Source: Pseudomonadota bacterium (GTDB lineage: Bacteria > Myxococcota_A > Bradymonadia > UBA4248). From it: 64,000 bases of DNA. The stretch lies in NCBI GenBank assembly GCA_017464085.1, contig JAFUEE010000083.1, forward strand, positions 1-64,000, in the 5' to 3' direction. Under the pieces are notes generated by a model, which did no database searches, was not told where the DNA came from, and saw nothing but the letters and a program-made list of their open reading frames with translations. Positions 14,565 through 36,236 of the stretch are shown here, in pieces (positions within the stretch are counted from its first letter, which is position 1; each line of letters opens with the position of its first letter). The translations under genes were made by a program, and so were the position numbers.

Positions 14565-17500
14565 TTAATTGACGATGACCGGGCAAGCCTTGATCGTCGT
14601 GCGGTCGCCGTTATTCTTCTCGTTGCATTCGATCGACGTGCGCCCACCCTTGCCGTCATCGTTGACAATGAGGACGACATCTCCCTGAATAACCTCGGGA
14701 ATCTCGCATGTCACATGCAGACAGCCGCCCACGGGCACGTTCTCGGACGTGTATGATGTGCAGAGCAGCGTGTATTTTTCCTTGCCTTCCTCATCATATT
14801 CAAACCGATAGAACGACGCGGGCATCAAAGAGGAGATGATCTTCATGCCACGGTTGCAGACCTCTGCACCGAGCGTCACCGTATCGCCATCGCGACCGCA
14901 GGCGTCGCCCACAAAACGCCCCGTGATATCGGGCGCATAGTTTGCCGCCACCGTGCCCTGTTTGTTCTGGCGGAAATTGTTCAGGCTGGGCATGAAATAA
15001 TTCTTGATCCAATCCGATGTCTTGGGCACCGTCTGATCATCATTAATATTGGTAATCGAATAGGCGTGCTGGTTCCAGATATTGCGCGAACTGACCCAGC
15101 GGTCGAGGCGGTCCTTCATGACGCGGACACCTGTCACGCGCTCGGAATTGTTGCGAATCGCGCGGCAGACATTGCCCTCTGCGGGCAAATCGTTCGCGCT
15201 GAGCGTCCCCACACACCCGTACTCATTGAGCAGGACGCCGTTCTGGTCGGTGCGCCAGTTGCACTCATCATTCGTCGTGCAGCGGCAGAGGCCAGCACGG
15301 CACACGCCCGATTTACAATCGTCATCCTTGGCACAGCGAATACCGCGATGAATCGGATCAGGGCTCTTGCAGCTCATCGCGTTGTTGGAGCCCACGACAA
15401 TCTCGGCCGCATCATCGTTGTCCACGTCCGCGATGACCGGGTTTTCGTGCCATGTCCCGCTCGACCGGTAGGCAGAGAACAGCACATCGCCGGTCTTGCC
15501 ATCATAGACGCGCGTGTAGCACTCGTCGGCATACACGGCCTCCATCGCGCCATCGCCGTCAAAGTCGAACAGTGATGAACCCGTGGAGCTCGACGACGCA
15601 TCCTGCGAAGCCTTGCTCCACAGGATATAGGCGTTAGAACATCCGTCGTTCGCCGACTTGCAGCGCGGATCGAAGATGCGGTAGCTGTCGCCGAAGGCCG
15701 CCGCCACCTCGGGGAAGCCGTCGCCGTCAAAATCGCCGATCGTGCACGGACCGCCGCCCGCAAGCCCGGTCACGCGAAGCACGTTCTCCCCTTCGAGCGT
15801 CGAGATCTGCACGACACCAGACCCGCAGTTGACGACTTCCGCGCGGCCGTCGAGCATGTTCGGATTGAACGTGCCGTCATCATTGCGCATCCCGAAATCG
15901 GCAAACGCCGGATGGATGCCCGTGCCCGTCGCCTTCGAATACGCCTTGACCCACGTATTCGAACTATTATCCCAGCGATAGGTGCTGCCCGTCCCGATGA
16001 TCTCGACCTTGCCGTCGTTGTCGAGATCGCCGAGCGTCGGCGTGTAAGAAAGCTCTGCAATCGTCTGCCCCGGGTTGAGCCGCTTGCCATCGAGCGTGCT
16101 GAACACCTCCCCGCCGTAGCCGACGATTTCCGGGATGCCGTCATTGTTGATGTCATGCACGGACGGGCCGCCCCAGTTCAGGTTGCCAGAATGCTGCGTC
16201 GTCGCCCACCAGGTGACATACTTCCCCGCCTCATTGTCCCAATGGAACGCCACAATACCGCCGCCGTTGCCCGCATGCTGCGCCGTGCCACGGCTCGCGA
16301 AAATCTCCACATACCCGTCATTGTCCACATCGGCCATCGCGATGTTCGACCCGCCGATGATATGGTTCGCATCGTCGAATATGCTCTCCTGAAGCGCGCA
16401 TGTCTCCCCGTTGATGATGCGGATCACGCCGTAATAGCGGATATCAGAGCCCTGCCCGGAGGGCGCGCCGCCGTCACTGTTGTTATAAGTCGTAAAGATG
16501 ATTTCCTGCGCCTTGCCGGAATCATGCGGCGTGTTCATGACGAGCGGCGTCATCAGCACATTGGCATGGTTCGGATACGGATCGCCGGCCGCAGGCGTCT
16601 TCCATTCGCACTGGACCGCCGCCTCAAAGATTCGCTCCTCATTCTGGAACTCACAGGACTCGTTCCGGTCGCCGCGCGGCCCCTCCCCATAAGACACGCA
16701 GAAATTGCGCGGGGAGCATGAATCGTCAAGACAGCAGTATGAGTCGCCCCAGCAGTCTTCATCGGTCGTGCAGTCCCCGTGATTCACCGAACACGAACTC
16801 GCCCCGTCATACGTAAAACACAGATCCCCCTCGGGACACAGATGCGAATCATCACATGCCTCCCCGGTCTTGACCGTCACCCGACAGACATCTTCCTGGC
16901 ACTCAGCGCCCTCCACGCACTGCTCGAATTCGCTGCAATGCGCCCCCACCGGGACATCCTTGATCATACACACATTGTCACAGACCGCGTCACCCGCACA
17001 GTCGCTGTCCAGCAGGCAGCTCTCCCCAAGCCCCGGAAGCTCCGTACAGATATGATCGACGCTGCAGATCAATCCGTCCATGCACGGCTTGTCTCCCCCG
17101 CAGGCACCGCCCGCACCGACCGCCTCGCGGCAATACCCGTCATCCGCGCATTTCATCTGGTCCGGACATGGCGCACCTTCAGCACAGGCGACAAGCTCAG
17201 GCACGTCGCTTTCCGCCACGCATATACCGCCCTCGCAGACACCCTCGCGGCAGAACACATGCTCCCCGGAGCAATCCTCCCCAAGGCCGGCATGCGTGCC
17301 GCACACGCCCTCGATGCAGTCCAGCCCCTCCGCGCATTCCGACTTCTCCGCGCAGGCACTTCCGGCGGCCTTTCCGACTTCCTCCGCCACGCATATTCCG
17401 CCCTCGCAGACACCCTCGCGGCAGAACACATGCTCCCCGGAGCAATCCTCCCCAAGGCCGGCATACGTGCCGCACACGCCCCCGATGCAGTCCAGCCCCT

Positions 17501-17801
17501 CCGCGCATTCCGTTTTCTCCGCGCAGGCACTTCCGGCGGCCTTTCCGACATCCTCCGCCACGCATATACCGCCCTCGCAGACACCCTCACGGCAGAACAC
17601 ATGCGTCCCGGAGCAATCCTCCCCAAGGCCGGCATACGTGCCGCACACGCCCTCGATACAGTCCATTCCCTCCGCGCATTCCGACTTCTCCGCGCAGGCA
17701 TCTCCAGTTCCTTTTTTAGTTTCCTTCGTGCCATCATCACTGCAGCCAAGCGCACATGCCACAAATGCCAGCGACACCATCCATATCCCTCTCGATTTCA
17801 T
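14565..17801 (-). CDS. Large FG-GAP / cysteine-rich surface lipoprotein
   Basis: A 1,078-residue predicted lipoprotein. The start at 17801 has AGAGGTGAG upstream and yields a signal peptide ending LGC at Cys20. Residues ~25-200 hold three nearly identical 57-residue cysteine modules (C.EK.EC.EG.DC..GVCGT and so on), encoded by three 171-bp DNA repeats. More cysteine modules follow to ~390. The remainder contains at least six FG-GAP / integrin-alpha-like motifs such as ADVDNDGYVEIF, HDINNDGIPEIV, GDLDNDGKVEII, GDFDGDGFPEVA and ADVDNDDAAEIV, which in known proteins form a Ca2+-binding beta-propeller. A role in surface adhesion or ligand binding is inferred. The stop codon lies in the target site of the adjoining MITE. 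Confidence 0.85.
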   Translation of the reverse strand: MKSRGIWMVSLAFVACALGCSDDGTKETKKGTGDACAEKSECAEGMDCIEGVCGTYAGLGEDCSGTHVFCREGVCEGGICVAEDVGKAAGSACAEKTECAEGLDCIGGVCGTYAGLGEDCSGEHVFCREGVCEGGICVAEEVGKAAGSACAEKSECAEGLDCIEGVCGTHAGLGEDCSGEHVFCREGVCEGGICVAESDVPELVACAEGAPCPDQMKCADDGYCREAVGAGGACGGDKPCMDGLICSVDHICTELPGLGESCLLDSDCAGDAVCDNVCMIKDVPVGAHCSEFEQCVEGAECQEDVCRVTVKTGEACDDSHLCPEGDLCFTYDGASSCSVNHGDCTTDEDCWGDSYCCLDDSCSPRNFCVSYGEGPRGDRNESCEFQNEERIFEAAVQCEWKTPAAGDPYPNHANVLMTPLVMNTPHDSGKAQEIIFTTYNNSDGGAPSGQGSDIRYYGVIRIINGETCALQESIFDDANHIIGGSNIAMADVDNDGYVEIFASRGTAQHAGNGGGIVAFHWDNEAGKYVTWWATTQHSGNLNWGGPSVHDINNDGIPEIVGYGGEVFSTLDGKRLNPGQTIAELSYTPTLGDLDNDGKVEIIGTGSTYRWDNSSNTWVKAYSKATGTGIHPAFADFGMRNDDGTFNPNMLDGRAEVVNCGSGVVQISTLEGENVLRVTGLAGGGPCTIGDFDGDGFPEVAAAFGDSYRIFDPRCKSANDGCSNAYILWSKASQDASSSSTGSSLFDFDGDGAMEAVYADECYTRVYDGKTGDVLFSAYRSSGTWHENPVIADVDNDDAAEIVVGSNNAMSCKSPDPIHRGIRCAKDDDCKSGVCRAGLCRCTTNDECNWRTDQNGVLLNEYGCVGTLSANDLPAEGNVCRAIRNNSERVTGVRVMKDRLDRWVSSRNIWNQHAYSITNINDDQTVPKTSDWIKNYFMPSLNNFRQNKQGTVAANYAPDITGRFVGDACGRDGDTVTLGAEVCNRGMKIISSLMPASFYRFEYDEEGKEKYTLLCTSYTSENVPVGGCLHVTCEIPEVIQGDVVLIVNDDGKGGRTSIECNEKNNGDRTTIKACPVIVN
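17221..17733 (-). repeat. Three in-frame 171-bp tandem repeats inside the FG-GAP lipoprotein gene
   Basis: Matching landmarks fall at 17221, 17392 and 17563, exactly 171 bp (57 codons) apart. Identity is very high for the first two units and lower at the end of the third, which borders the signal peptide region. Slippage or unequal recombination here would change the number of cysteine modules without breaking the frame. Confidence 0.85.
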
Positions 17802-18021: not shown

Positions 18022-18762
18022 TCATGCCTGCGCGTCCGCATCGGTCATATCCACGGTATTCCCGACGCTTTTGTTCGCCTTGCGCAATTCCTGACGGCGC
18101 CTGATGGCCGCATTCATCGCATTGATCTGAGCGATCGCCTCCGAGGCGCCGGGCAGCTCATCCAGCGACGCCATCATTTCCAGATACCGCGCAAGCGCCT
18201 TCCAGGCCGCATAGCAGTCTGCCGAGACCTCTTTGATCTGTCCTGCCTGGACTTTCGCGAGCGCGTCCAATTTGTCCGAGCTTGCGACGATAAAGTCCTC
18301 CACAGCCGCCTGAAGCGCCTGAACATGCTCATCGACAAGCGCCGCCTTGAGCGTGTCCGCATCGAGCGACGCGAGCTGCGACAGCAGCGTGCTCAGCGCG
18401 CCATACTCCTCGTCAAACCCCAGGCGCGTGGGATTGGGCGTCTTGGAGAAAACTGCATCGACCTTCGCCGCCGCCTCGCGAACACCCTGACGGGGATGCA
18501 CCAGGCTGGCGCTGATCTGAAGCGCCAGCGAGCGCCAGGCGTCGTCCGCAATCCTGTCCAGCGCCTCAAGGCTCAGCGAAGGCGCAAGCCCCTTGCTGAC
18601 GAGCAATGCATCAAATGATTTCGCCGCCGCCTCAAAGCGATCATAAGCCTTGCCGCACTTGCCACAGGTGTTCAGAACAATCTGCATGACACGGTCATGA
18701 AACGAATGCTGCTCCTCTCTCCTGAAATGCACATAGTCCACATTGATGATCCTCTCCGCCAT
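18022..18762 (-). CDS. Helical protein resembling DUF6261
   Basis: A 246-residue, mostly helical, Ala-rich protein without signal peptide or membrane segment. The start NVDYVHFRREEQHSFHDRVMQIV and the overall helical layout resemble the DUF6261 family known mainly from Bacteroidota, whose function is unknown; this match is from memory and tentative. A single CGKCGKAY motif near residue 33 could bind a metal. The last ~25 residues are polar. It stands alone between repeat-rich intergenic regions and is divergent from the SMC-type operon. There is no convincing evidence that it belongs to that operon. Confidence 0.6.
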   Translation of the reverse strand: MAERIINVDYVHFRREEQHSFHDRVMQIVLNTCGKCGKAYDRFEAAAKSFDALLVSKGLAPSLSLEALDRIADDAWRSLALQISASLVHPRQGVREAAAKVDAVFSKTPNPTRLGFDEEYGALSTLLSQLASLDADTLKAALVDEHVQALQAAVEDFIVASSDKLDALAKVQAGQIKEVSADCYAAWKALARYLEMMASLDELPGASEAIAQINAMNAAIRRRQELRKANKSVGNTVDMTDADAQA

Positions 18763-18867
18763 TGCCGGTCTCCTTCATTATGTATGGGCATCATTGCCAC
18801 GGTAGCCCGGATTTATCGCATAGAGCCCGCGACTTGTCATGCGCATTTTTTCAATATTATGAATCAG

Positions 18868-19250
18868 CGCTGAATCTTCACTCCGAAAAAATTCAGACCC
18901 CCGCTGCAGCGCTGAATCTTCACTCCGAAAAATTTCAGACCCCCGCTGCAGCGCTGAATCTTCACTCCGAAAAATTTCAGACCCCCGCTGCAGCTGTGAA
19001 CCTGCACTCCGAAAAATTTCAGACCCCCGCTGCAGCGGTGAACCTGCACTCCGAAAAATTTCAGACCCCCGCTGCAGCGATGAATCTTCACTCCGAAAAA
19101 TTTCAGACCCCCGCTGCAGCGATGAACCTGCACTCCGAAAAATTTCAGACCCCCGCCGCAGCGATGAACCTGCACTCCGAAAAATTTCAGACCCCCGCTG
19201 CAGCTGTGAACCTGCACTCCGAAAAATTTCAGACCCCCGCTGCAGCTGTG
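18868..19250. repeat. Tandem array, nine units of exactly 42 bp
   Basis: The landmark CACTCCG recurs at 18879, 18921, 18963, 19005, 19047, 19089, 19131, 19173 and 19215. Each unit carries CACTCCGAAAAATTTCAGAC, then CCCCGCTGCAGC and a variable linker (GCTGAATCTT or GTGAACCTG). Since 42 is divisible by three, frames stay open on both strands, giving spurious 14-residue peptide repeats. There is no good start or Shine-Dalgarno sequence, so I treat it as non-coding. The unit shares its motif order with the 43-bp array at 47416-47710. Confidence 0.9.
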
Positions 19251-19264
19251 AGGCATACCTCCGA

Positions 19265-19402: not shown

Positions 19403-19502
19403 GCCCCAAAACACCACACGCATAACGCGGCTTGCACATTCCCCCCGATTTGAAGTAAATAGCCGCGGTTTTTGTGAACTCTGCAAAGGGATGGTAGAGT
19501 AG

Positions 19503-20975
19503 ATGGATTTATTCAGCAATTTACCGGTCGATGCACCGGACATCAGCGACGAGCTAAGGAACGGCGCACTCGTGAAGCGTCTTCGCGTGCTTCTGCACGC
19601 CTACCCGCTGTTTCAGCTCAGCCAGTCGGACGGGCGCCGGGACGAAGCGTTCCGCCACTATGATACGCTGGTGATCGCGCTCAAGATCATGGACACCATA
19701 GCGGAGCGCATGGGCGACACGATCGAGGCAGACCGGGAATATATTGATTTTTCGCTCGAGCAGCTTCTGGACAGCATGGACCGCCGCGCGGGGCTGTTCC
19801 CGGATGCGAAGCGCCACACGCAGATCGTGGACCGCGTGCTGGCGGCGCTCAAGAACGACGGGGATGCGCGACGCCCGTTCAAGATGCCGTACACGGACAT
19901 CGACGCGACAGGCGAAGTGACCGAAAGGCTGCTGGAGTTCAGGCTGATCCAGGATGCGTTCGGCCTGGACGGCTCGACGGTGATGCGCCTGACGAACGAG
20001 GCCGTGAACCTGTATTTCAACGCGCTGGAGCTTGACCTCGAGGACAGCCAGGCGGCGACGGAAGCGATCGTCCACTCGCAGATGTGCCGCGGGAAGTTCG
20101 ACGAGGCGCGAAAGAGCGCGCATTTTGCGTGGCGGCAGTCGCGGATGTACTGCGACCGCATCCAGAAGATGCTGCACGAGACACAGCGCGACATCACGAG
20201 CGTGGACTGGTCCGAGAAAGCGCCGCGCCTGATTTCTGACGCGATGTCGCATCTGGAGACGCGCCTGGATGTCGAGCAGAAGATCATCCAGACAGCCAGC
20301 GAGCGGCTTGAGTCGCTCAAACCGGGGACGCCGGAAAGCCTTTCGGTCGCGAGGGTCATTTTCGTGATCCAATACTGCATCGAGACGCACACGGTGCTTC
20401 AGCGCGAGCTGATGACGGCGCGCGCGACGTTCCTCGACAGCCAGGCCTATCAGGCGTTCGTGCCCGAGAAGGCGTCGAAATATCCGGACCTGATGCACGA
20501 AGTCGTGGAACCGCTGCTCGGCATGGCGGTGCCCGATGCGCAGACCGTGATCGACAGGAGCCTGCCGCACCTGATGGCGCCCAAGATGCCCTCGCAGGTG
20601 TCGCTGTGCTTCCTGTTTGACGGGCTTCTGCGCCCCAAGCGCGCGCAGCGCAAGGACTGGATCGACATCGAGACGCTCGACCCGACGCATGTGTCCGGCG
20701 ACCTGATGCGATACAGCGAAGAAGACCGCAAGATTGCCGAAAGCCTGCTCGCATCCGTGCTTCAGGCGACGACGCTCAGCGACCTGCTGGCGTATGCGCG
20801 CTCGCAGAAGTTCACGCGGACGCAGTGCGAGGTCATCCTGCTCCTCGTCATGCAGCACTTCGACAAGGAGAGCACCGAAAACCCGATCGTGCGCGTCGAG
20901 AAGGCGAACACGCTTCTGAGCGACCCCGACTATTACGGGGACGAAGTGTGGATTTATCCTGTCGAATCCTTCTGA
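19503..20975 (+). CDS. MukF/JetA-like kleisin subunit (predicted)
   Basis: A 490-residue soluble, mainly helical protein, first of a three-gene set followed by a MukE-like and a MukB-like gene. No catalytic motif is visible. Assignment rests on gene order, size, predicted helical N-terminal and middle segments and a compact C-terminal region (ATTLSDLLAYARSQKFTRTQCEVILLLV) that could be a winged helix, all typical of non-SMC kleisins in MukBEF, MksBEF and Wadjet (JetABC) complexes. In such complexes the kleisin bridges the SMC heads and recruits the KITE subunit. AAAGGGA lies upstream of the ATG. A strong terminator-like hairpin follows its stop codon inside the presumed operon. Confidence 0.6.
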   Translation: MDLFSNLPVDAPDISDELRNGALVKRLRVLLHAYPLFQLSQSDGRRDEAFRHYDTLVIALKIMDTIAERMGDTIEADREYIDFSLEQLLDSMDRRAGLFPDAKRHTQIVDRVLAALKNDGDARRPFKMPYTDIDATGEVTERLLEFRLIQDAFGLDGSTVMRLTNEAVNLYFNALELDLEDSQAATEAIVHSQMCRGKFDEARKSAHFAWRQSRMYCDRIQKMLHETQRDITSVDWSEKAPRLISDAMSHLETRLDVEQKIIQTASERLESLKPGTPESLSVARVIFVIQYCIETHTVLQRELMTARATFLDSQAYQAFVPEKASKYPDLMHEVVEPLLGMAVPDAQTVIDRSLPHLMAPKMPSQVSLCFLFDGLLRPKRAQRKDWIDIETLDPTHVSGDLMRYSEEDRKIAESLLASVLQATTLSDLLAYARSQKFTRTQCEVILLLVMQHFDKESTENPIVRVEKANTLLSDPDYYGDEVWIYPVESF

Positions 20976-21005
20976 CAGACGCTCGCTATGACTGACACTT
21001 ACGGA

Positions 21006-21039
21006 ACGCATGCGCTCAGGCATGCGTGATTTTTTTTTT
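21006..21039 (+). terminator. Intrinsic terminator inside the SMC operon
   Basis: ACGCATGC and GCATGCGT form a perfect 8-bp stem around the loop GCTCAG, followed after two bases by ten consecutive T. It lies in the 75-bp gap between the kleisin-like and KITE-like genes. It should reduce read-through, so the first subunit may be made in excess, or the downstream genes may have another promoter. Confidence 0.85.
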
Positions 21040-21050
21040 AAGATAAAGCC

Positions 21051-22139
21051 ATGTCACTTGAACTCACCGATGTTTTCCGCGCCGCGAGGCTCCTTCAGTG
21101 GGGGCTTCAGCCGCGCATCCGGCCGATCCAGAACAGCGAGTATCGGGAACTCGTCAGGGAATACCTGAACCGTAGCGAGTTCCGCGATGCGGTGCACGAG
21201 ATGAGCGACGGCCTGGGGCTGTACGTGCTCAACGTGAGCGAGCACGGCGTAGTGCTGAGCCCGCGCGAAGAGAGCGTGTTCTGGATGCGCGCGTCAGAAT
21301 TCCGCCCGGGCAATTCGTCTGCGGACACGCGCCTTCTGGACGGCCTTGTGGAGATCACGATTGCGGCGACGGTGTTCCCGCGCGCGCGCGATCTTGAGGA
21401 TGACGTGAACCGCCCGCGTCCGCCCGTGACCGTGGATGAGATCGACGACGCGCTGCGCGCGATATGCGCGCGCTTTAAGGAAGAGTTTGCAGACGTCGAC
21501 CCGGACATGGACGATGTGCGCACCGGCCTTTACGATGCCTGGAGAGTGTATGACAACACGCTGGCGCAGCGCGAGACGAAGGACGGGCGAGAGGCGCGCA
21601 ACTCATCGCGCCGAATCATTAAGTATAATCTGGAGCGGCTCAAGGAATTCGGGTGTTTTACGGAGACGCGCTATGCGGGCAAGGAAGCGTGGCAGCCCAC
21701 GCGCCGGTATAACGTGCTCGTGCAGGAACTGGCGGCCTCGAAGCTCTTTGACGAAGTGCTGAAGATCAAGAATGGCGGCGCACCGCAGGAAGACGTGTTC
21801 GCAGAAGACGACATGCATGCGGCGCCCACTGAACAGCCTGAGGAGGACTGGGGCAGCGCGTTCCGCGACCAGTCTGTCGAGCTCGACGACATGGGCGATG
21901 CCATCCCGCGCGAAAAGCGCGACAGCGAGGATGACGAACGCCCCGATATAGACGGCGATCTGGATTCGGACGGCCTGCCCGATGACGCTCTGTTTGAAGA
22001 AGACGCGGACCTGCCCGGCGAAGACGGCCTCTATGACGAGGCTGACGAAGACGAGGCGTTCGACGGCCTCTATGACGAGGACGACATGGATGATGCAGGC
22101 ACATACGACGGCGATGATGAAGACGAGGACATGGAGTAA
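21051..22139 (+). CDS. MukE/JetB-like KITE subunit with acidic tail (predicted)
   Basis: A 362-residue protein. The N-terminal ~235 residues look like a tandem winged-helix protein (SLELTDVFRAARLLQWG at the start, later SSRRIIKYNLERLKEFGCFTETRY and RRYNVLVQELAASKLFDEVLKI). The last ~110 residues are an extremely acidic, Asp/Glu-rich tail with repeats such as GLYDEADEDEAF and GLYDEDDMDD, which might mimic DNA or contact the SMC heads. Its place between a kleisin-like and an SMC-like gene fits the KITE subunit of MukBEF/Jet complexes. Twelve bases separate it from the SMC gene. There is no strong Shine-Dalgarno sequence, so it may depend on coupling or weak initiation. Confidence 0.6.
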   Translation: MSLELTDVFRAARLLQWGLQPRIRPIQNSEYRELVREYLNRSEFRDAVHEMSDGLGLYVLNVSEHGVVLSPREESVFWMRASEFRPGNSSADTRLLDGLVEITIAATVFPRARDLEDDVNRPRPPVTVDEIDDALRAICARFKEEFADVDPDMDDVRTGLYDAWRVYDNTLAQRETKDGREARNSSRRIIKYNLERLKEFGCFTETRYAGKEAWQPTRRYNVLVQELAASKLFDEVLKIKNGGAPQEDVFAEDDMHAAPTEQPEEDWGSAFRDQSVELDDMGDAIPREKRDSEDDERPDIDGDLDSDGLPDDALFEEDADLPGEDGLYDEADEDEAFDGLYDEDDMDDAGTYDGDDEDEDME

Positions 22140-22151
22140 GGGAGAAGAGCG

Positions 22152-25100
22152 ATGCCAAAACTTTCGCGACTGAGATTTGTTTCGATCGGCCATCCGAACG
22201 CGCGTATGCAGGACCTGCTCCTCAACCTGAGCGACCAGTCAGGTGTTCCGACAGACTCGACGATCTGGCTTCGCAACGGCGGCGGCAAATCGTCGATCCT
22301 GAGCCTTTTCTTTGCGCTCCCGCGCCCGAACCGGCGAGATTTTCTGGGGAGCAAGGCGGACGCCAAGCAGCGCCGGATCGAGGACTATATATTGACGAAC
22401 GACCGCAGCGTGGTGGCCGCCGAATGGACGCTCGACCTTCAGACGCTCGGATTTGAAGGGGAACAGAACATCGCGCGCTTTGTGACAGGCGTGTTTTATG
22501 AGTATTCCGGCGGTAACCGAGACAGCCTGAGGCGATTGTTTTTCAGCGCGCGCGTGAGCGATGCCGTGGAAGAGACGCAGCTGCCGACGCTTCCGATCGA
22601 CATGGTGACGCCAGAGGGGACGCGCGTGCGGCGGACGCTTCTGTCGTTCAAGCAGGCGTGGAACGCGCTTCGCGACAGCCACCCGAGCCTTCAGTTCGCG
22701 TGCACCGAGAACCAGAACGAATGGAGCGACAGGCTTCAGAGCGCGGGGATCGACCCAGGTCTTTTCGGCTACCAGCTGATCATGAACAGCCGCGAAGGCG
22801 GCGCGGACGAGCTTTTTCGCTTCAACAGCCCGGATGATTTTGTCGACTTCCTGCTGGAGCTGACCGTCGAGCCGAACAAGACCGACGGCATCACAGAGAA
22901 TCTTGAGACATATCGAAAGCAGCTGCAGCGCAGGAAACACGAATACCTGCCGGACCTCGCGCTATCGACAGGGCTCGTGGAGCGGCTTTCCCCGCTCGTA
23001 GAGCTGCACGAGCGGCGCATGCGCATCCAGGAGGAAGCACACCGTCTGACAGACCTTTACACGCAGATCCGCCATTCGATCGCAAACGATATGGCCGCGC
23101 TGGCCGAGCAGGAAAACGCCGCGACAGAGGAAATCAAGACATTGCGGACAGCGTGGAACGCGACAGAGGTGCAGCGAGAGCGCGACAGAGGCATCGCGAT
23201 CGCGATCGCGCTGAGAATCGCGGAAGAGGATGAGGCGCGCGCGCGCAAGCAGGTCGAAGACCTGACGGAAGCCGTCGAACAGGCCGTGCGCGAAGAGCTC
23301 CTGTGGAAGGCAGCCTATCCGTACCAGAACTATGTCATCGCGCAGAAAGATGCCGACACCTATCGCGAAGCGCTTGCGGGCACTGACGACAACCGCGCGC
23401 CGCTGATGGCGCGCCTGGCACAGGCGGCACAAGACTATGTGGCGGCAATGCGCCACCAGATCGAAGCCCTGACTCAGCAGCGCGAGGAAATTCGCCAGAA
23501 ATCGCGCGAAATGGATATCGAGAGCCAGAACATCGACCTCGAATCGAACACTTATGAGCGCCGCGCGATTGCCTGTGAATCCGAGAGCAACGCCTATCTC
23601 CAGAACCTGAACAGCCGTCAGAACAAATTCGAGAGCCTGATCAAGCTGGGGATTCTTCTGGCGACCGAAACGCCAGCCCAGGCGCTTGAGCGCACGGACA
23701 ATCAGCTCAAGGAAAAGCGCAAGAAGCTGCGCTCGATCGAACGCGGCCGCGAAGGCGATGAAGCGCTCGAAGACGATTACGAACGCCAGATCACCGACCT
23801 TCAGCGCTCGACAGCCACAAAGGATGCGGAGATCAGCTCCCTCGAACGAGAGTTCCAGAAAGCGACCGAAGCGCGCGACAAGCTTGAAGCAGACAAGAAC
23901 TTCCTGAGCGTGCTCGAACTCGACAGCGTCGATCTGGACGAACTTCCGGAAGACACGGCAGGCCTGCTTCAACGGCATGCCTCGGACATGCAGGAAGAAG
24001 CCGCCAAGCTCCGGACAGAAGCCGCATCACTCGAACGCGCGCGCGTGCATATCCAGGAGCGCGGCCTGATGCCGCCCACTGTCGAAGTCGAGAATCTCCT
24101 GTCGTTCCTCGGCCCCAAGTCGAACGCGTGTTCGGGGTGGTCATATATCAGCGAGCATGTGCCTGAAGATCGCCAGGAAGCCATCGTGCATGCCTACCCC
24201 GGCATTGCACAGGGCATCGTCGTACCCTCGCGCGAACTCGAGCGCGTCCGCAACCTGATCACCTCCAATCCCGAAGCGATTCCCCCGCTCCCGATCACGA
24301 TCGCCACCCCGGAAGCGCTCGAAGCACTGCCCGAAACTTCCGAAAGATTCCAATGCATCGTCGGGCCCAAAGACCACGCCTGGTTCGACCGCGCGGATGC
24401 CCAGAAAGCACTCGAAAATCTGGAGAGCCGACTTGCATCGCTCCAGACCGCGATCAATGACGCGCTTCAGTCACAGAACAATATCCTGAATGCCCTGACG
24501 AAATTCCGCGCATTCAGGAACCAATACCCGCGCGGATGGTTTGCGACGACGCGCACGCGGATCGCGCAGCTCCGTGTCAATTCCGAAGACGACCGCGCCA
24601 CGCTTGATATGCGCCGCGAAGAAAAAACTCGCCTGATCGAAAAGAAGCGCAGCAGCGAACATATCGCCAACAAGCTCAACACAGAAATCCAAGGCCTCGT
24701 GCATGCCTGCGACAAGCTCCGGGAGTTCGTGGACGAAGTCGACAATTCCACAGAAACCTGGAAGAAGAGCGCGCAAGAAAAACAGGCAGAGGCCCAGACA
24801 CACCGCGAAGAAGCAGAAGCATTGCGCCTTCAGGCGCGCGAGATTCGCGAGCGCTCGCGCCAGCTGTTCCAATCGGCAGAACCGCTCACTTCGCAGATCA
24901 ACCTCTATGAAAATGAGATCTCACATGTCAAATACCTCCCCGATCAGCCTGCGCCGAAACAAGGGAACATCGAGACGCTCAAGAGCGACTATGAACGCCT
25001 GCGCGAACAAGTCGAACGCGAACTGACAAACAACGAACTCGCGCAAAAGCTCGAAAACGCCGAAGCCCAGGCAAAGAAAGACAAGAAGCAGGTCATGCAG

Positions 25101-26654
25101 CTGATCCGGAACGTGCTGACGCTCGATGAAGTCCGCGAGGCCGTCGCAAGCCTTGCGAATCCGAACGACCTCGAAGCGAACGGCGAACGCGCGGCAGAAC
25201 TGCTCCAGGTCACGCGGACGCGCAAAGAGAAGGCCATCGCCGAACTGAGCAGCTGTGAATCAGCGCGCAAGCAGCAACAGAACGCCTGGCTGGGCGCAGG
25301 CAAACCGAGCATTCCAGAAGGCACAGTGACCACCCGGGAAAGCATCGCGCTGTTCGAGCAGAGCGCGGACGCCGCCACAGGCGTTCTGAATTCCATCGAT
25401 CAATCCATCCGCGAACAGGAAAAGCTGATTGCGAATGCGAAACATGGGAAAGACGCGCTTACGAAAGACCTCGAGCGCCTCAATTCTGTCCAGCGCAGCC
25501 ATGCGACTTTTTTGACCGGCCAGATCGAGCTGACGACAGTCCTTGAGGTCATCGATGCCGCCGAGATCGGCAATGCCATATCTGATCTGGAAAAGCGCCT
25601 TGAGAGCTATAAAGAGTCGCATGAAGGTTTGGATTCGAGCCGCAGATCTGCCGTGTCTGCCATTCGCAAATGGGTAGATCAGGATCAGTTTGCCAACCTT
25701 CAGAACCGCATATTGACGCAGTTCAGGACGCTCGATGCCGAAGCACTCGAAAACGGCGCAGCAGAATTCCGCGAATCCCTGAACATCCGTCTGCGCGAGA
25801 TCACAGCGACGCTTGAAGAGCTCGAGAAACACCGAAGTTTTCTGGCGAAATTCCTGCTCAATGCGGCAGACGAAGGCCTTCGCCTGCTCAAGCTCGCAGA
25901 CTCGGCGAGTACTGTGCCGAGGGAAGTGCCCGACATCGGGGGATCGCGATTTTTGAGGATTACGACGAAAGAGCCAGCGTCGCAGGCAGACCGCCTCGAA
26001 CTGATTCAGGAGCTCGTGGACGCGCTCGTGGACGAGACAGTTTTGCCGACGGGCACGAAGCTGATACAGCGCGCAGTGCGCCAGCTCGCGCGCCCGTTCA
26101 CGGTGCGCGTGCTCAACCCCGATCCCGCATCGCCCCAGAAGCTCATAGAGATTACAGAGACCGCGCGCTTTAGCGGCGGTGAACAGCTGACATGCGCCAT
26201 TTTGCTGTATTGCACGCTTGCAAATGTGCGCGCGCGCACGCGCGGCATGAACCGTCAGCCGACGAGCGTGCTGATTCTGGACAACCCGATCGGGCGCGCG
26301 AGCCGCACCGTGTTCATCAATATGCAGCGCAAGTTCGCAAGCGCGATGGGCATCCAGCTGATCTATACGACGGCAGTCAACGACCTCGAGGCATTGAGCA
26401 TCCTGCCCAATGTCGTGCGCCTGAGAAACGAACGGACAGACCTGAACAAAGGCCACCGCTTGCTCGAAAAGGATGTCGATATTTCTGGCCAGCTCGAAGC
26501 CATCCGCATGGCCAAGGCCAAGGAAGATTCGGACGACACGCCTGAAGCGCCGGACGCAACAGAACGCGATGCGATCGAAGCGGAACCCGAGGCACCGGAA
26601 GTGCCAGATGCGCCACAAGTGCCTGAGAACGAAGGCGAAGGCGACAATGCATGA
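22152..26654 (+). CDS. MukB/JetC-like SMC ATPase with Asn at the Walker B catalytic position
   Basis: A 1,500-residue SMC-type ATPase. The N-terminal head carries Walker A NGGGKSS at residues 42-48. Long Glu/Arg/Lys-rich coiled-coil runs fill ~270-620 and ~780-1210. Between them, ~640-760, is a globular hinge-like domain (GWSYISEHVPEDRQEAIVHA, GIVVPSRELERV). The C-terminal head has the signature FSGGEQ at 1340-1345 and Walker B LILDNPIGRAS at 1374-1384, where Asn1378 replaces the usual catalytic Glu. The last ~50 residues are an acidic Pro/Glu tail. AAGGGAG precedes the ATG. Known relatives extrude DNA loops for chromosome organisation or recognise plasmid DNA. No JetD-type nuclease gene follows. 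I recall similar LDNPIG motifs in actinobacterial SMC-like proteins, so the substitution may be family-wide. Confidence 0.8.
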   Translation: MPKLSRLRFVSIGHPNARMQDLLLNLSDQSGVPTDSTIWLRNGGGKSSILSLFFALPRPNRRDFLGSKADAKQRRIEDYILTNDRSVVAAEWTLDLQTLGFEGEQNIARFVTGVFYEYSGGNRDSLRRLFFSARVSDAVEETQLPTLPIDMVTPEGTRVRRTLLSFKQAWNALRDSHPSLQFACTENQNEWSDRLQSAGIDPGLFGYQLIMNSREGGADELFRFNSPDDFVDFLLELTVEPNKTDGITENLETYRKQLQRRKHEYLPDLALSTGLVERLSPLVELHERRMRIQEEAHRLTDLYTQIRHSIANDMAALAEQENAATEEIKTLRTAWNATEVQRERDRGIAIAIALRIAEEDEARARKQVEDLTEAVEQAVREELLWKAAYPYQNYVIAQKDADTYREALAGTDDNRAPLMARLAQAAQDYVAAMRHQIEALTQQREEIRQKSREMDIESQNIDLESNTYERRAIACESESNAYLQNLNSRQNKFESLIKLGILLATETPAQALERTDNQLKEKRKKLRSIERGREGDEALEDDYERQITDLQRSTATKDAEISSLEREFQKATEARDKLEADKNFLSVLELDSVDLDELPEDTAGLLQRHASDMQEEAAKLRTEAASLERARVHIQERGLMPPTVEVENLLSFLGPKSNACSGWSYISEHVPEDRQEAIVHAYPGIAQGIVVPSRELERVRNLITSNPEAIPPLPITIATPEALEALPETSERFQCIVGPKDHAWFDRADAQKALENLESRLASLQTAINDALQSQNNILNALTKFRAFRNQYPRGWFATTRTRIAQLRVNSEDDRATLDMRREEKTRLIEKKRSSEHIANKLNTEIQGLVHACDKLREFVDEVDNSTETWKKSAQEKQAEAQTHREEAEALRLQAREIRERSRQLFQSAEPLTSQINLYENEISHVKYLPDQPAPKQGNIETLKSDYERLREQVERELTNNELAQKLENAEAQAKKDKKQVMQLIRNVLTLDEVREAVASLANPNDLEANGERAAELLQVTRTRKEKAIAELSSCESARKQQQNAWLGAGKPSIPEGTVTTRESIALFEQSADAATGVLNSIDQSIREQEKLIANAKHGKDALTKDLERLNSVQRSHATFLTGQIELTTVLEVIDAAEIGNAISDLEKRLESYKESHEGLDSSRRSAVSAIRKWVDQDQFANLQNRILTQFRTLDAEALENGAAEFRESLNIRLREITATLEELEKHRSFLAKFLLNAADEGLRLLKLADSASTVPREVPDIGGSRFLRITTKEPASQADRLELIQELVDALVDETVLPTGTKLIQRAVRQLARPFTVRVLNPDPASPQKLIEITETARFSGGEQLTCAILLYCTLANVRARTRGMNRQPTSVLILDNPIGRASRTVFINMQRKFASAMGIQLIYTTAVNDLEALSILPNVVRLRNERTDLNKGHRLLEKDVDISGQLEAIRMAKAKEDSDDTPEAPDATERDAIEAEPEAPEVPDAPQVPENEGEGDNA

Positions 26655-34456: not shown

Positions 34457-34640
34457 ATCGCGCGCTTTGACATCTTCACATCTCCTCGCGGTGCCGACAC
34501 CGCACGCGATTCATAACGCCCCTTTCTTCAATTGGCCGCCCCCCCAGCACAAACGCTCCCCTTTTCCAGCCCCTCATGTTATACTCAGCGCGCATGGCGC
34601 AAGGGGCTGATCCCCTTGCAGGCTTCTCATGGAGGGCGAT

Positions 34641-36236
34641 ATGGGCATCTACATCAATCCAGGCAACGAATCATTCCGCGTCATTCGGCAGGGAAAATAC
34701 GTAGACAAATCCGGGCTCATCGGCGTGGTCAATCGCACCATCGGCCTGCCAAACAAGCTCAGCTGCATCAGCCGGCCAAGGCGTTTCGGCAAGTCATACG
34801 CAGCACAGATGCTCTGCGCCTATTACTGTCTGGGATGCGATTCAACATCTCTGTTTGACGATCTGGAAATCGCAAAGGATGAGACCTATCGGAAACATCT
34901 GAATCAGTATAATATCATTTACCTTGACATCTCTGGCGTCATTGGCAAGGCCGGACTAAACAAGATGCTCTTGTTTATTACTCAAAAAGTATCCGAGGAA
35001 ATCTATAAAATTTATCCCAATGTTGAGCACACCGATGCATTGTCTGATTTGCTCTATAATGCCGTCGAAGCCACTGGCCGACAATTCATCGCCATCATCG
35101 ACGAATGGGATGCTCCGATTCGCGACAATGACTGCACTGCAGAAATACGTAAAATTTATCTTCAGTTTCTTCGCAGCCTATTCAAGGACAGTTCTATCAC
35201 CAATAAGGTTTTCGCTGCCGCATATATGACCGGCATCCTTCCCATTAAAAAAGACGGCAGCCAGTCGGCCATATCAGAATTCTGGGAATATACCATCTTA
35301 CAGCCAGGAGAATATGCGCCATACATAGGATTTACCGAAAAAGAGATTGATGCCCTTTGCGAAGAATTCCATGTCGATATTAATAAAATGAAATACTGGT
35401 ATGATGGGTATAAAATCCGTGGTGTCGGATCTGTGTATAATCCCAATTCTGTCATGAAGGCAATACAGACCAATATATTTCAATCCTATTGGCCAGCCAC
35501 CTCCGATCCGACAAGCCTTCTGGAATACCTGAACCTGGACAAAGAAGGCCTGGGCAAAGCGCTTGTCGAACTTATGGCCGGCAAAGAAGTGCCCCTTAAT
35601 CCGAGGCGTTTCCGCAATGACCCGTCGTCTCTGAAATCTGAGGACGACGTCCTGACCCTCCTCACGCACTACGGCTATTTATCGTATGACGAGGAGCGCG
35701 AAACTGTGCGCATCCCCAACGAGGAAATCCGCATCGAATATGCTGATACTATCCACGAAGTCACGCATGCAGAAACCATTCAACGCGTCAAGCGAAGCGT
35801 GCAGCTCATGAAAGACACGGCAGACATGCGCGCAAATGCCGTCGCCATGGAACTACAAAAAATACACACCGAGGAATATGGACCGCGCCATTATAATAAT
35901 GAACAATCCCTGCGCGGCACAATCAAACTCGCTTATTTCGCATATAAAGATGAATATTTTCAGCAGGAAGAACTCGCGGGCGACACAGGCTATGCCGATA
36001 TTGTATATTTACCAAAACGCAATTCAGACTATCCCGCGCTTGTGATTGAATTAAAAGCCCTCGACAAATCACATCCCCAAAACGATGCCGAAGGCGCGAT
36101 CGCGCAAATCAAAAAACGACGATATCCGGATATTCTTAAAAATTATACAGAAGAAATTTTATTAGTCGGCATCAGCTATGACAGAGATGATCCGGATAAA
36201 ACACATTCCTGTATGATTGAAAGCTGGATGGGATAG
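34641..36236 (+). CDS. AAA-ATPase-like protein with C-terminal PD-(D/E)XK domain (DUF1703)
   Basis: A 531-residue protein. The start MGIYINPGN at 34641 has GGAGGGCGAT before it. Residues ~1-310 form the AAA-ATPase-like domain: the P-loop region SRPRRFGKSYAA (~46-57), the Walker B-like FIAIIDEWDAPI, and YWYDGYKI. Residues ~430-531 form a PD-(D/E)XK nuclease-like domain with GYADIVYLPK, LVIELKALDK and a QIKKRRYPDIL helix. The family occurs in many copies in some anaerobes and its role is unresolved; defence and mobile-element functions have been suggested. A C-terminal fragment of a relative opens the window and an N-terminal stub lies at 47349. Its base composition is AT-richer than the neighbours, consistent with transfer. 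Confidence 0.9.
   Translation: MGIYINPGNESFRVIRQGKYVDKSGLIGVVNRTIGLPNKLSCISRPRRFGKSYAAQMLCAYYCLGCDSTSLFDDLEIAKDETYRKHLNQYNIIYLDISGVIGKAGLNKMLLFITQKVSEEIYKIYPNVEHTDALSDLLYNAVEATGRQFIAIIDEWDAPIRDNDCTAEIRKIYLQFLRSLFKDSSITNKVFAAAYMTGILPIKKDGSQSAISEFWEYTILQPGEYAPYIGFTEKEIDALCEEFHVDINKMKYWYDGYKIRGVGSVYNPNSVMKAIQTNIFQSYWPATSDPTSLLEYLNLDKEGLGKALVELMAGKEVPLNPRRFRNDPSSLKSEDDVLTLLTHYGYLSYDEERETVRIPNEEIRIEYADTIHEVTHAETIQRVKRSVQLMKDTADMRANAVAMELQKIHTEEYGPRHYNNEQSLRGTIKLAYFAYKDEYFQQEELAGDTGYADIVYLPKRNSDYPALVIELKALDKSHPQNDAEGAIAQIKKRRYPDILKNYTEEILLVGISYDRDDPDKTHSCMIESWMG

What the first reader, a model, noticed from the sequence alone, without database searches (positions are those of the whole stretch)
19503..26654. 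Three-gene MukFEB/JetABC-like SMC module without a nuclease subunit
A kleisin-sized protein, a small protein with an acidic tail and a 1,500-residue SMC ATPase occur in the same order as in MukBEF-like and Wadjet operons. Wadjet additionally has JetD, a topoisomerase VI-like nuclease subunit, but the next gene here is a surface lipoprotein. The module is either a chromosome-organising condensin or a defence-type complex with an unlinked or absent effector. The acidic ~110-residue tail of the second protein is unusual for a KITE subunit.
Basis: partly seen in the sequence, partly recalled or inferred. Interest (0 to 1): 0.75.

Follow-up and report, generated by a model that had tools for sequence, protein, structure and literature searches.

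The report
Nuclease-free Wadjet core as sole condensin
A gut bacterium and its whole order carry the DNA-looping core of an anti-plasmid defence machine without its DNA-cutting part, and they lack the standard bacterial chromosome-organising machine, which suggests that the defence core has been turned into the cell's chromosome organiser.

Summary
Window 19503-26654 encodes the A, B and C subunits of a type III Wadjet (JetABC): PADLOC JetA3 8.7e-86, JetB3 5.6e-4, JetC3 4.6e-190. Blind fold searches rank MukF first for A and MukE first for B. The cutting subunit JetD is absent genome-wide: two JetD models find nothing in nine of nine genomes of the order, though JetD sits directly behind JetC in two other genomes of the class.
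Beyond the finding: all nine genomes of the order lack true Smc and ScpA, and eight carry JetA and/or JetC. The two JetD-bearing genomes of the class have Smc and ScpA. Three Acidobacteriota (one complete chromosome) show the same pattern: JetABC, no adjacent JetD, no Smc. Selection is strongly purifying (dN/dS 0.03-0.07) and inheritance vertical.
Best explanation: a nuclease-free type III Wadjet core serves as housekeeping loop-extruding condensin in place of Smc-ScpAB, as MukBEF does in enterobacteria. The function is inferred, not shown. The acidic tail of B is real but lineage-specific, variable and predicted disordered. Caveat: two other families of the class lack both Smc and JetABC.

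The parts
19431..19502 (+). leader of jetA with a conserved CTTGCAC element and a conserved stretch AACTCTGCAAAGGGATGGTAGAGTA before the start codon
   Evidence: alignment of the upstream DNA of six genomes; the CTTGC core is kept in all six, the later stretch in the five genomes of the genus, also where jetA stands alone in G003
19503..20975 (+). jetA, kleisin (MukF/MksF-like), 490 aa
   Evidence: PADLOC JetA3 8.7e-86; Foldseek best match MukF 9gm7_C, E 1.7e-4, probability 0.99; dN/dS 0.061
21051..22139 (+). jetB, KITE (MukE/MksE-like), 362 aa
   Evidence: PADLOC JetB3 5.6e-4; Foldseek ranks 1-6 all MukE, probability 0.87-0.95; dN/dS of the core 0.03
21771..22136 (+). acidic, variable, predicted disordered C-terminal tail of JetB (residues 241-362)
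   Evidence: 44% Asp/Glu, dN/dS 0.25; low pLDDT; present in the genus and in G001, absent in G008, JetD-bearing systems and Holophagae
22152..26654 (+). jetC, SMC ATPase (MukB/MksB-like), 1500 aa
   Evidence: PADLOC JetC3 4.6e-190 over residues 3-1455; 65-87% identical over the genus; dN/dS 0.072
22275..22295 (+). Walker A of JetC, NGGGKSS
   Evidence: conserved across the order and in most JetD-bearing homologues
26169..26192 (+). ABC signature of JetC, FSGGEQLT
   Evidence: alignment of C-terminal heads
26268..26288 (+). Walker B of JetC, VLILDNP
   Evidence: LDNP or MDNP in all JetC3 compared, with or without JetD

Best explanation
The three genes encode a MukBEF-like SMC complex made of the JetABC core of a type III Wadjet system: JetC is the SMC motor, JetA the kleisin, JetB the KITE. 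The nuclease JetD has been lost. In this order the core has been kept as the cell's only detectable SMC condensin. It would load on the chromosome, extrude loops by ATP hydrolysis and help to compact and segregate sister chromosomes, in place of the missing Smc-ScpAB. Shown by sequence: subunit identity, intact ATP-binding motifs, absence of JetD, absence of Smc and ScpA, vertical inheritance, strong purifying selection. Inferred: loop extrusion, chromosomal loading and the housekeeping role.
For: Type III Jet profiles and MukF/MukE folds. JetA and/or JetC in 8 of 9 genomes of the order. JetD models silent in 9 of 9, with positive controls. Smc and ScpA absent in 9 of 9, while the two genomes of the class with complete JetABCD have both. 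No type I/II MksF in the order. dN/dS 0.03-0.07. Gene trees follow kinship; subunits are retained although jetA is unlinked in G003 and the order is B-C-A in G008. Same pattern (JetABC, no adjacent JetD, no Smc) in three Acidobacteriota, one a complete chromosome.
Against: Families f4 and f7 and three further genomes lack Smc and ScpA without carrying JetABC, so Smc loss in this class is not tied to JetABC alone. G007 has neither (82% complete). Genomes of one order are not independent. ScpB was not searched. No functional data.
Confidence: 0.68

Rival explanations
1. It is still a defence complex: JetABC senses small circular DNA and acts through a different, unlinked effector, or silences plasmids by compaction without cutting, as proposed for Smc5/6.
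For: The nearest profiles are those of a defence system, and type III relatives with JetD occur on plasmids. An effector unrelated to JetD would not be seen by the searches made.
Against: Present in nearly every genome of the order and inherited with the species, unlike a patchy defence system. No conserved fourth gene next to it. Smc-ScpAB is missing, so some condensin function is needed.
Confidence: 0.2
2. It is a remnant of a Wadjet locus that lost its nuclease and is decaying.
For: JetD is lost and the operon is broken up in G003.
Against: dN/dS of 0.03-0.07, intact ATPase motifs, full-length genes across an order.
Confidence: 0.03
3. Artefact of incomplete assemblies: JetD, Smc and ScpA exist but lie in assembly gaps.
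For: All genomes of the order are fragmented; in G003 and G004 the contig ends within 70 bases after jetC.
Against: Nine genomes of 82-99% completeness all lack all three. In G000, G005 and G006 DNA beyond jetC is present and holds no jetD. The complete Sulfidibacter chromosome also lacks Smc.
Confidence: 0.04

Closest known systems
Wadjet type III (JetABCD)
   Same: JetA3 and JetC3 profiles over full length, A-B-C order, JetC of about 1,450-1,550 aa with NGGGKS and LDNP motifs
   Different: No JetD in the operon or genome; core nearly universal in an order that lacks Smc; acidic tail on JetB
MukBEF of enterobacteria
   Same: Kleisin and KITE best match MukF and MukE; no nuclease; takes the place of Smc-ScpAB (for MukBEF: PMC10586767)
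   Different: Sequence belongs to the type III Jet group; different phylum; order kleisin-KITE-SMC as in mukFEB, but B-C-A in G008
MksBEF of Pseudomonas aeruginosa
   Same: A nuclease-free Wadjet-group core that acts on the chromosome (PMC10586767)
   Different: P. aeruginosa keeps SMC beside MksBEF (PMC7485682), here Smc is absent; DUF3375 kleisins of that group are absent here
JetABC of Acanthopleuribacter and Sulfidibacter (Acidobacteriota)
   Same: Type III JetA and JetC profiles (1.4e-84, 1.7e-142), A-B-C order, no JetD next to it, no Smc
   Different: Only about 25% identity, no acidic tail, separate branch in the gene trees, although one common JetD-less origin is not excluded

Membership tests
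Wadjet type III (JetABCD) | JetA3 kleisin | tested here: met
   8.7e-86 over residues 20-485
Wadjet type III (JetABCD) | JetB3 KITE | tested here: met
   weak profile match 5.6e-4, MukE-like fold ranked first, position between A and C
Wadjet type III (JetABCD) | JetC3 SMC ATPase | tested here: met
   4.6e-190 over residues 3-1455
Wadjet type III (JetABCD) | JetD nuclease | tested here: not met
   PF09983 and PDLC00594 silent in nine genomes of the order, controls ring
Wadjet type III (JetABCD) | restriction of small circular plasmids | not testable with these tools
   needs an experiment
MukBEF-like housekeeping condensin (by role) | nuclease-free kleisin-KITE-SMC complex | tested here: met
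MukBEF-like housekeeping condensin (by role) | Smc-ScpAB replaced | tested here: met
   Smc and ScpA absent in nine of nine genomes; ScpB not searched
MukBEF-like housekeeping condensin (by role) | loop extrusion, chromosome compaction and segregation | not testable with these tools
   needs biochemistry and genetics
Smc-ScpAB | TIGR02168 Smc with ScpA | tested here: not met
   JetC gives 13 bits against a cut-off of 567; ScpA model silent in the order
type I/II Wadjet or MksBEFG | DUF3375 kleisin | tested here: not met
   PF11855 silent in the order, control rings in C. glutamicum

The most novel reading that the evidence does not exclude
Type III Wadjet cores were domesticated into housekeeping condensins at least twice outside the gammaproteobacteria (an order of Myxococcota and the Acanthopleuribacterales of Acidobacteriota), each time with loss of JetD and of Smc-ScpAB. 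Defence-to-housekeeping conversion would then be a recurrent route by which bacteria replace their condensin.
Probability: 0.42. Interest if true: 0.78.

Novelty: new variant of a known kind. Interest (0 to 1): 0.63.

Why it matters
Reviews have proposed that MukBEF and MksBEF descend from Wadjet-like defence systems that lost their nuclease (PMC10586767), and several Wadjet-group members are known to lack it (PMC7617805). Here is a lineage, and perhaps a second independent one with cultured strains and a complete chromosome, in which a nuclease-free type III core is the only SMC complex found and Smc is gone. That makes the conversion from defence to chromosome housekeeping testable outside the enterobacteria, and it warns that defence-finding software may call such cores Wadjet defence.

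Tried and rejected
DUF2397 (PF09660) was tried first as a marker and rang nowhere, not even in controls, so it says nothing. Pfam and NCBIfam give no useful hit for the three proteins. Sequence profiles of JetA, JetB and the JetC head find no convincing solved homologue in the PDB. A common origin of all JetD-less cores was tested: the best trees need two changes, but one clade is not rejected (AU p 0.056 for JetC, 0.24 for JetA). The SMC of families f4 and f7 was sought with the JetC head profile, DUF3375 and a script over 2.0 Mb of G055: nothing found, inconclusive. A decaying remnant was rejected on dN/dS. A mobile or phage origin: no phage match, and only remote plasmid relatives; of the five plasmid loci opened, four carry JetD or a JetD3-profile gene behind C, and the fifth (Salmonella) has a broken jetC.

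Full report
1. What is there. The window (the first 64 kb of an 82.8 kb contig of a 4.3 Mb assembly; its near relatives in public data are water-buffalo, goat and other MAGs labelled Proteobacteria or Myxococcales, for example UBA4248) holds three co-directional genes at 19503-20975, 21051-22139 and 22152-26654. The gaps between them are 75 and 12 bases. PADLOC profiles identify JetA3 (8.7e-86), JetB3 (5.6e-4) and JetC3 (4.6e-190), that is, the core of a type III Wadjet system. Pfam and NCBIfam say nothing useful.

2. Fold tests. AlphaFold2 on seven-row alignments gave models of modest confidence (mean pLDDT 62 for A, 60 for B). Blind Foldseek against the PDB nevertheless ranked MukF chains first for A (E 1.7e-4, probability 0.99) and MukE chains first for B (six top ranks, probability 0.87-0.95, E about 0.01-0.04).

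3. No nuclease. PF09983 (JetD_C) and PDLC00594 (JetD3) find nothing in any of the nine genomes of the order, while the first rings in C. glutamicum and the second in G040 and G048 of the same class, where JetD stands directly behind JetC. On plasmids of Streptomyces, Polaromonas and Rhodococcus the type III locus is A-B-C-D, with a four-base overlap or a short gap before D. Behind jetC in this order stand unrelated genes that differ between species: a lipoprotein here, a HAD phosphatase in G005, another gene in G006.

4. Distribution. JetC is in all six genomes of the genus and in G008 of another family. JetA and JetB are also in G001 of a second genus, where JetB runs off the contig end and JetC would be next. 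Only G007 (82% complete) shows nothing. Gene trees of A and C follow kinship within the order. jetA is on another contig in G003, and the order is B-C-A in G008, the latter inferred from two abutting contigs. Selection between the window and G004 is strongly purifying: dN/dS 0.06 (A), 0.03 (B core), 0.07 (C), like the MgtE magnesium-transporter gene nearby at 0.05. The core is a vertically kept gene set, not a patchy defence island.

5. The unexpected link. Smc (TIGR02168) is missing from all nine genomes of the order: best matches are under 60 bits and lie in coiled coil, against a cut-off of 567 and hundreds of bits in most genomes of families f3, f5 and f6. ScpA (PF02616) is likewise missing from all nine and present in 34 of the other 48. 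The two genomes of the class that carry complete JetABCD have both Smc and ScpA. No type I/II MksF kleisin is present in the order. JetABC is thus the only SMC complex that could be detected.

6. A second lineage. A scan of named genomes returned JetABC in a Holophagae bin, Acanthopleuribacter pedis and Sulfidibacter corallicola (Acidobacteriota; Sulfidibacter belongs to the Acanthopleuribacterales) at about 25% identity, in the order A-B-C, with the next clear genes on the other strand and no JetD next to it. All three lack Smc as well, and the Sulfidibacter record is a complete chromosome. Whether JetD was lost once or twice is open (AU p 0.056 and 0.24). JetD genome-wide and ScpA were not searched there.

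7. Mechanism proposed. JetC dimers joined by JetA and carrying JetB form a MukBEF-like motor; ATP-driven loop extrusion on the chromosome replaces Smc-ScpAB, and without JetD extrusion cannot end in cleavage. Shown here: parts, intact ATP-binding motifs, missing JetD, missing Smc and ScpA, selection. Inferred: extrusion, loading and the housekeeping role. The acidic tail of JetB (34-50% Asp/Glu, about 76 to more than 160 residues; disordered and at dN/dS 0.25 in the window's copy) occurs in the genus and in G001, and not in G008, JetD-bearing systems or Holophagae. A guess is that it competes with DNA at the KITE surface, as the phage DNA mimic gp5.9 blocks DNA capture by MukBEF (PMC7617805); its fast evolution argues for bulk charge rather than a defined interface.

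8. What stands against it. Families f4 and f7 and genomes G013, G016 and G050 lack Smc and ScpA without having JetC3 or MksF, and a partial read of G055 found no SMC-like gene. Smc loss in this class is therefore not explained by JetABC alone. Genomes of one order are not independent. ScpB was not searched. The genomes of the order are fragmented assemblies, though nine at 82-99% completeness make a shared gap very unlikely.

9. Comparison with what is known. A review of SMC-based immunity and a 2025 MukBEF paper state that MukBEF replaced Smc-ScpAB in enterobacteria and relatives, that P. aeruginosa MksBEF likely arose by loss of JetD, and that several Wadjet-group members lack it (PMC10586767, PMC7617805). 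The kind is therefore known. New here is a type III core, in other phyla, in genomes without Smc. No paper describing this was found among those held; subscription papers and the data supplements of the 2025 paper, which list Wadjet operons, were not available. Verdict: new variant of a known kind.

Noticed in passing
genomes G030-G034 (f4), G054-G056 (f7), G013, G016, G050: These genomes of the same class lack Smc and ScpA and also JetC3 and MksF. What organises their chromosomes is unknown; 2.0 Mb of G055 read by script showed no SMC-like gene.
   Followed up: partly
window 26268-26288, and all JetC3 compared: The Walker B motif reads LDNP (MDNP in one), with Asn where SMC ATPases such as MukB carry the catalytic Glu, in JetD-bearing and JetD-less type III members alike.
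   Followed up: partly
window 18865-19251: A 42-base tandem repeat, 9.2 copies at 95% match, a few hundred bases upstream of jetA.
   Followed up: no
window 18022-18762, minus strand: A DUF6261 protein (Pfam 5.2e-15) upstream of jetA that was not found beside jetA in G004.
   Followed up: no
L014:3353-5392, minus strand: In G008 a RecQ-like helicase with HRDC domain, similar to PADLOC DpdF models, follows jetA.
   Followed up: no
window 17212-17700: A 171-base repeat, 2.9 copies, inside an FG-GAP lipoprotein-like gene.
   Followed up: no
window 34629-36236: A predicted AAA-ATPase_like protein with a PDDEXK_9 nuclease domain.
   Followed up: no
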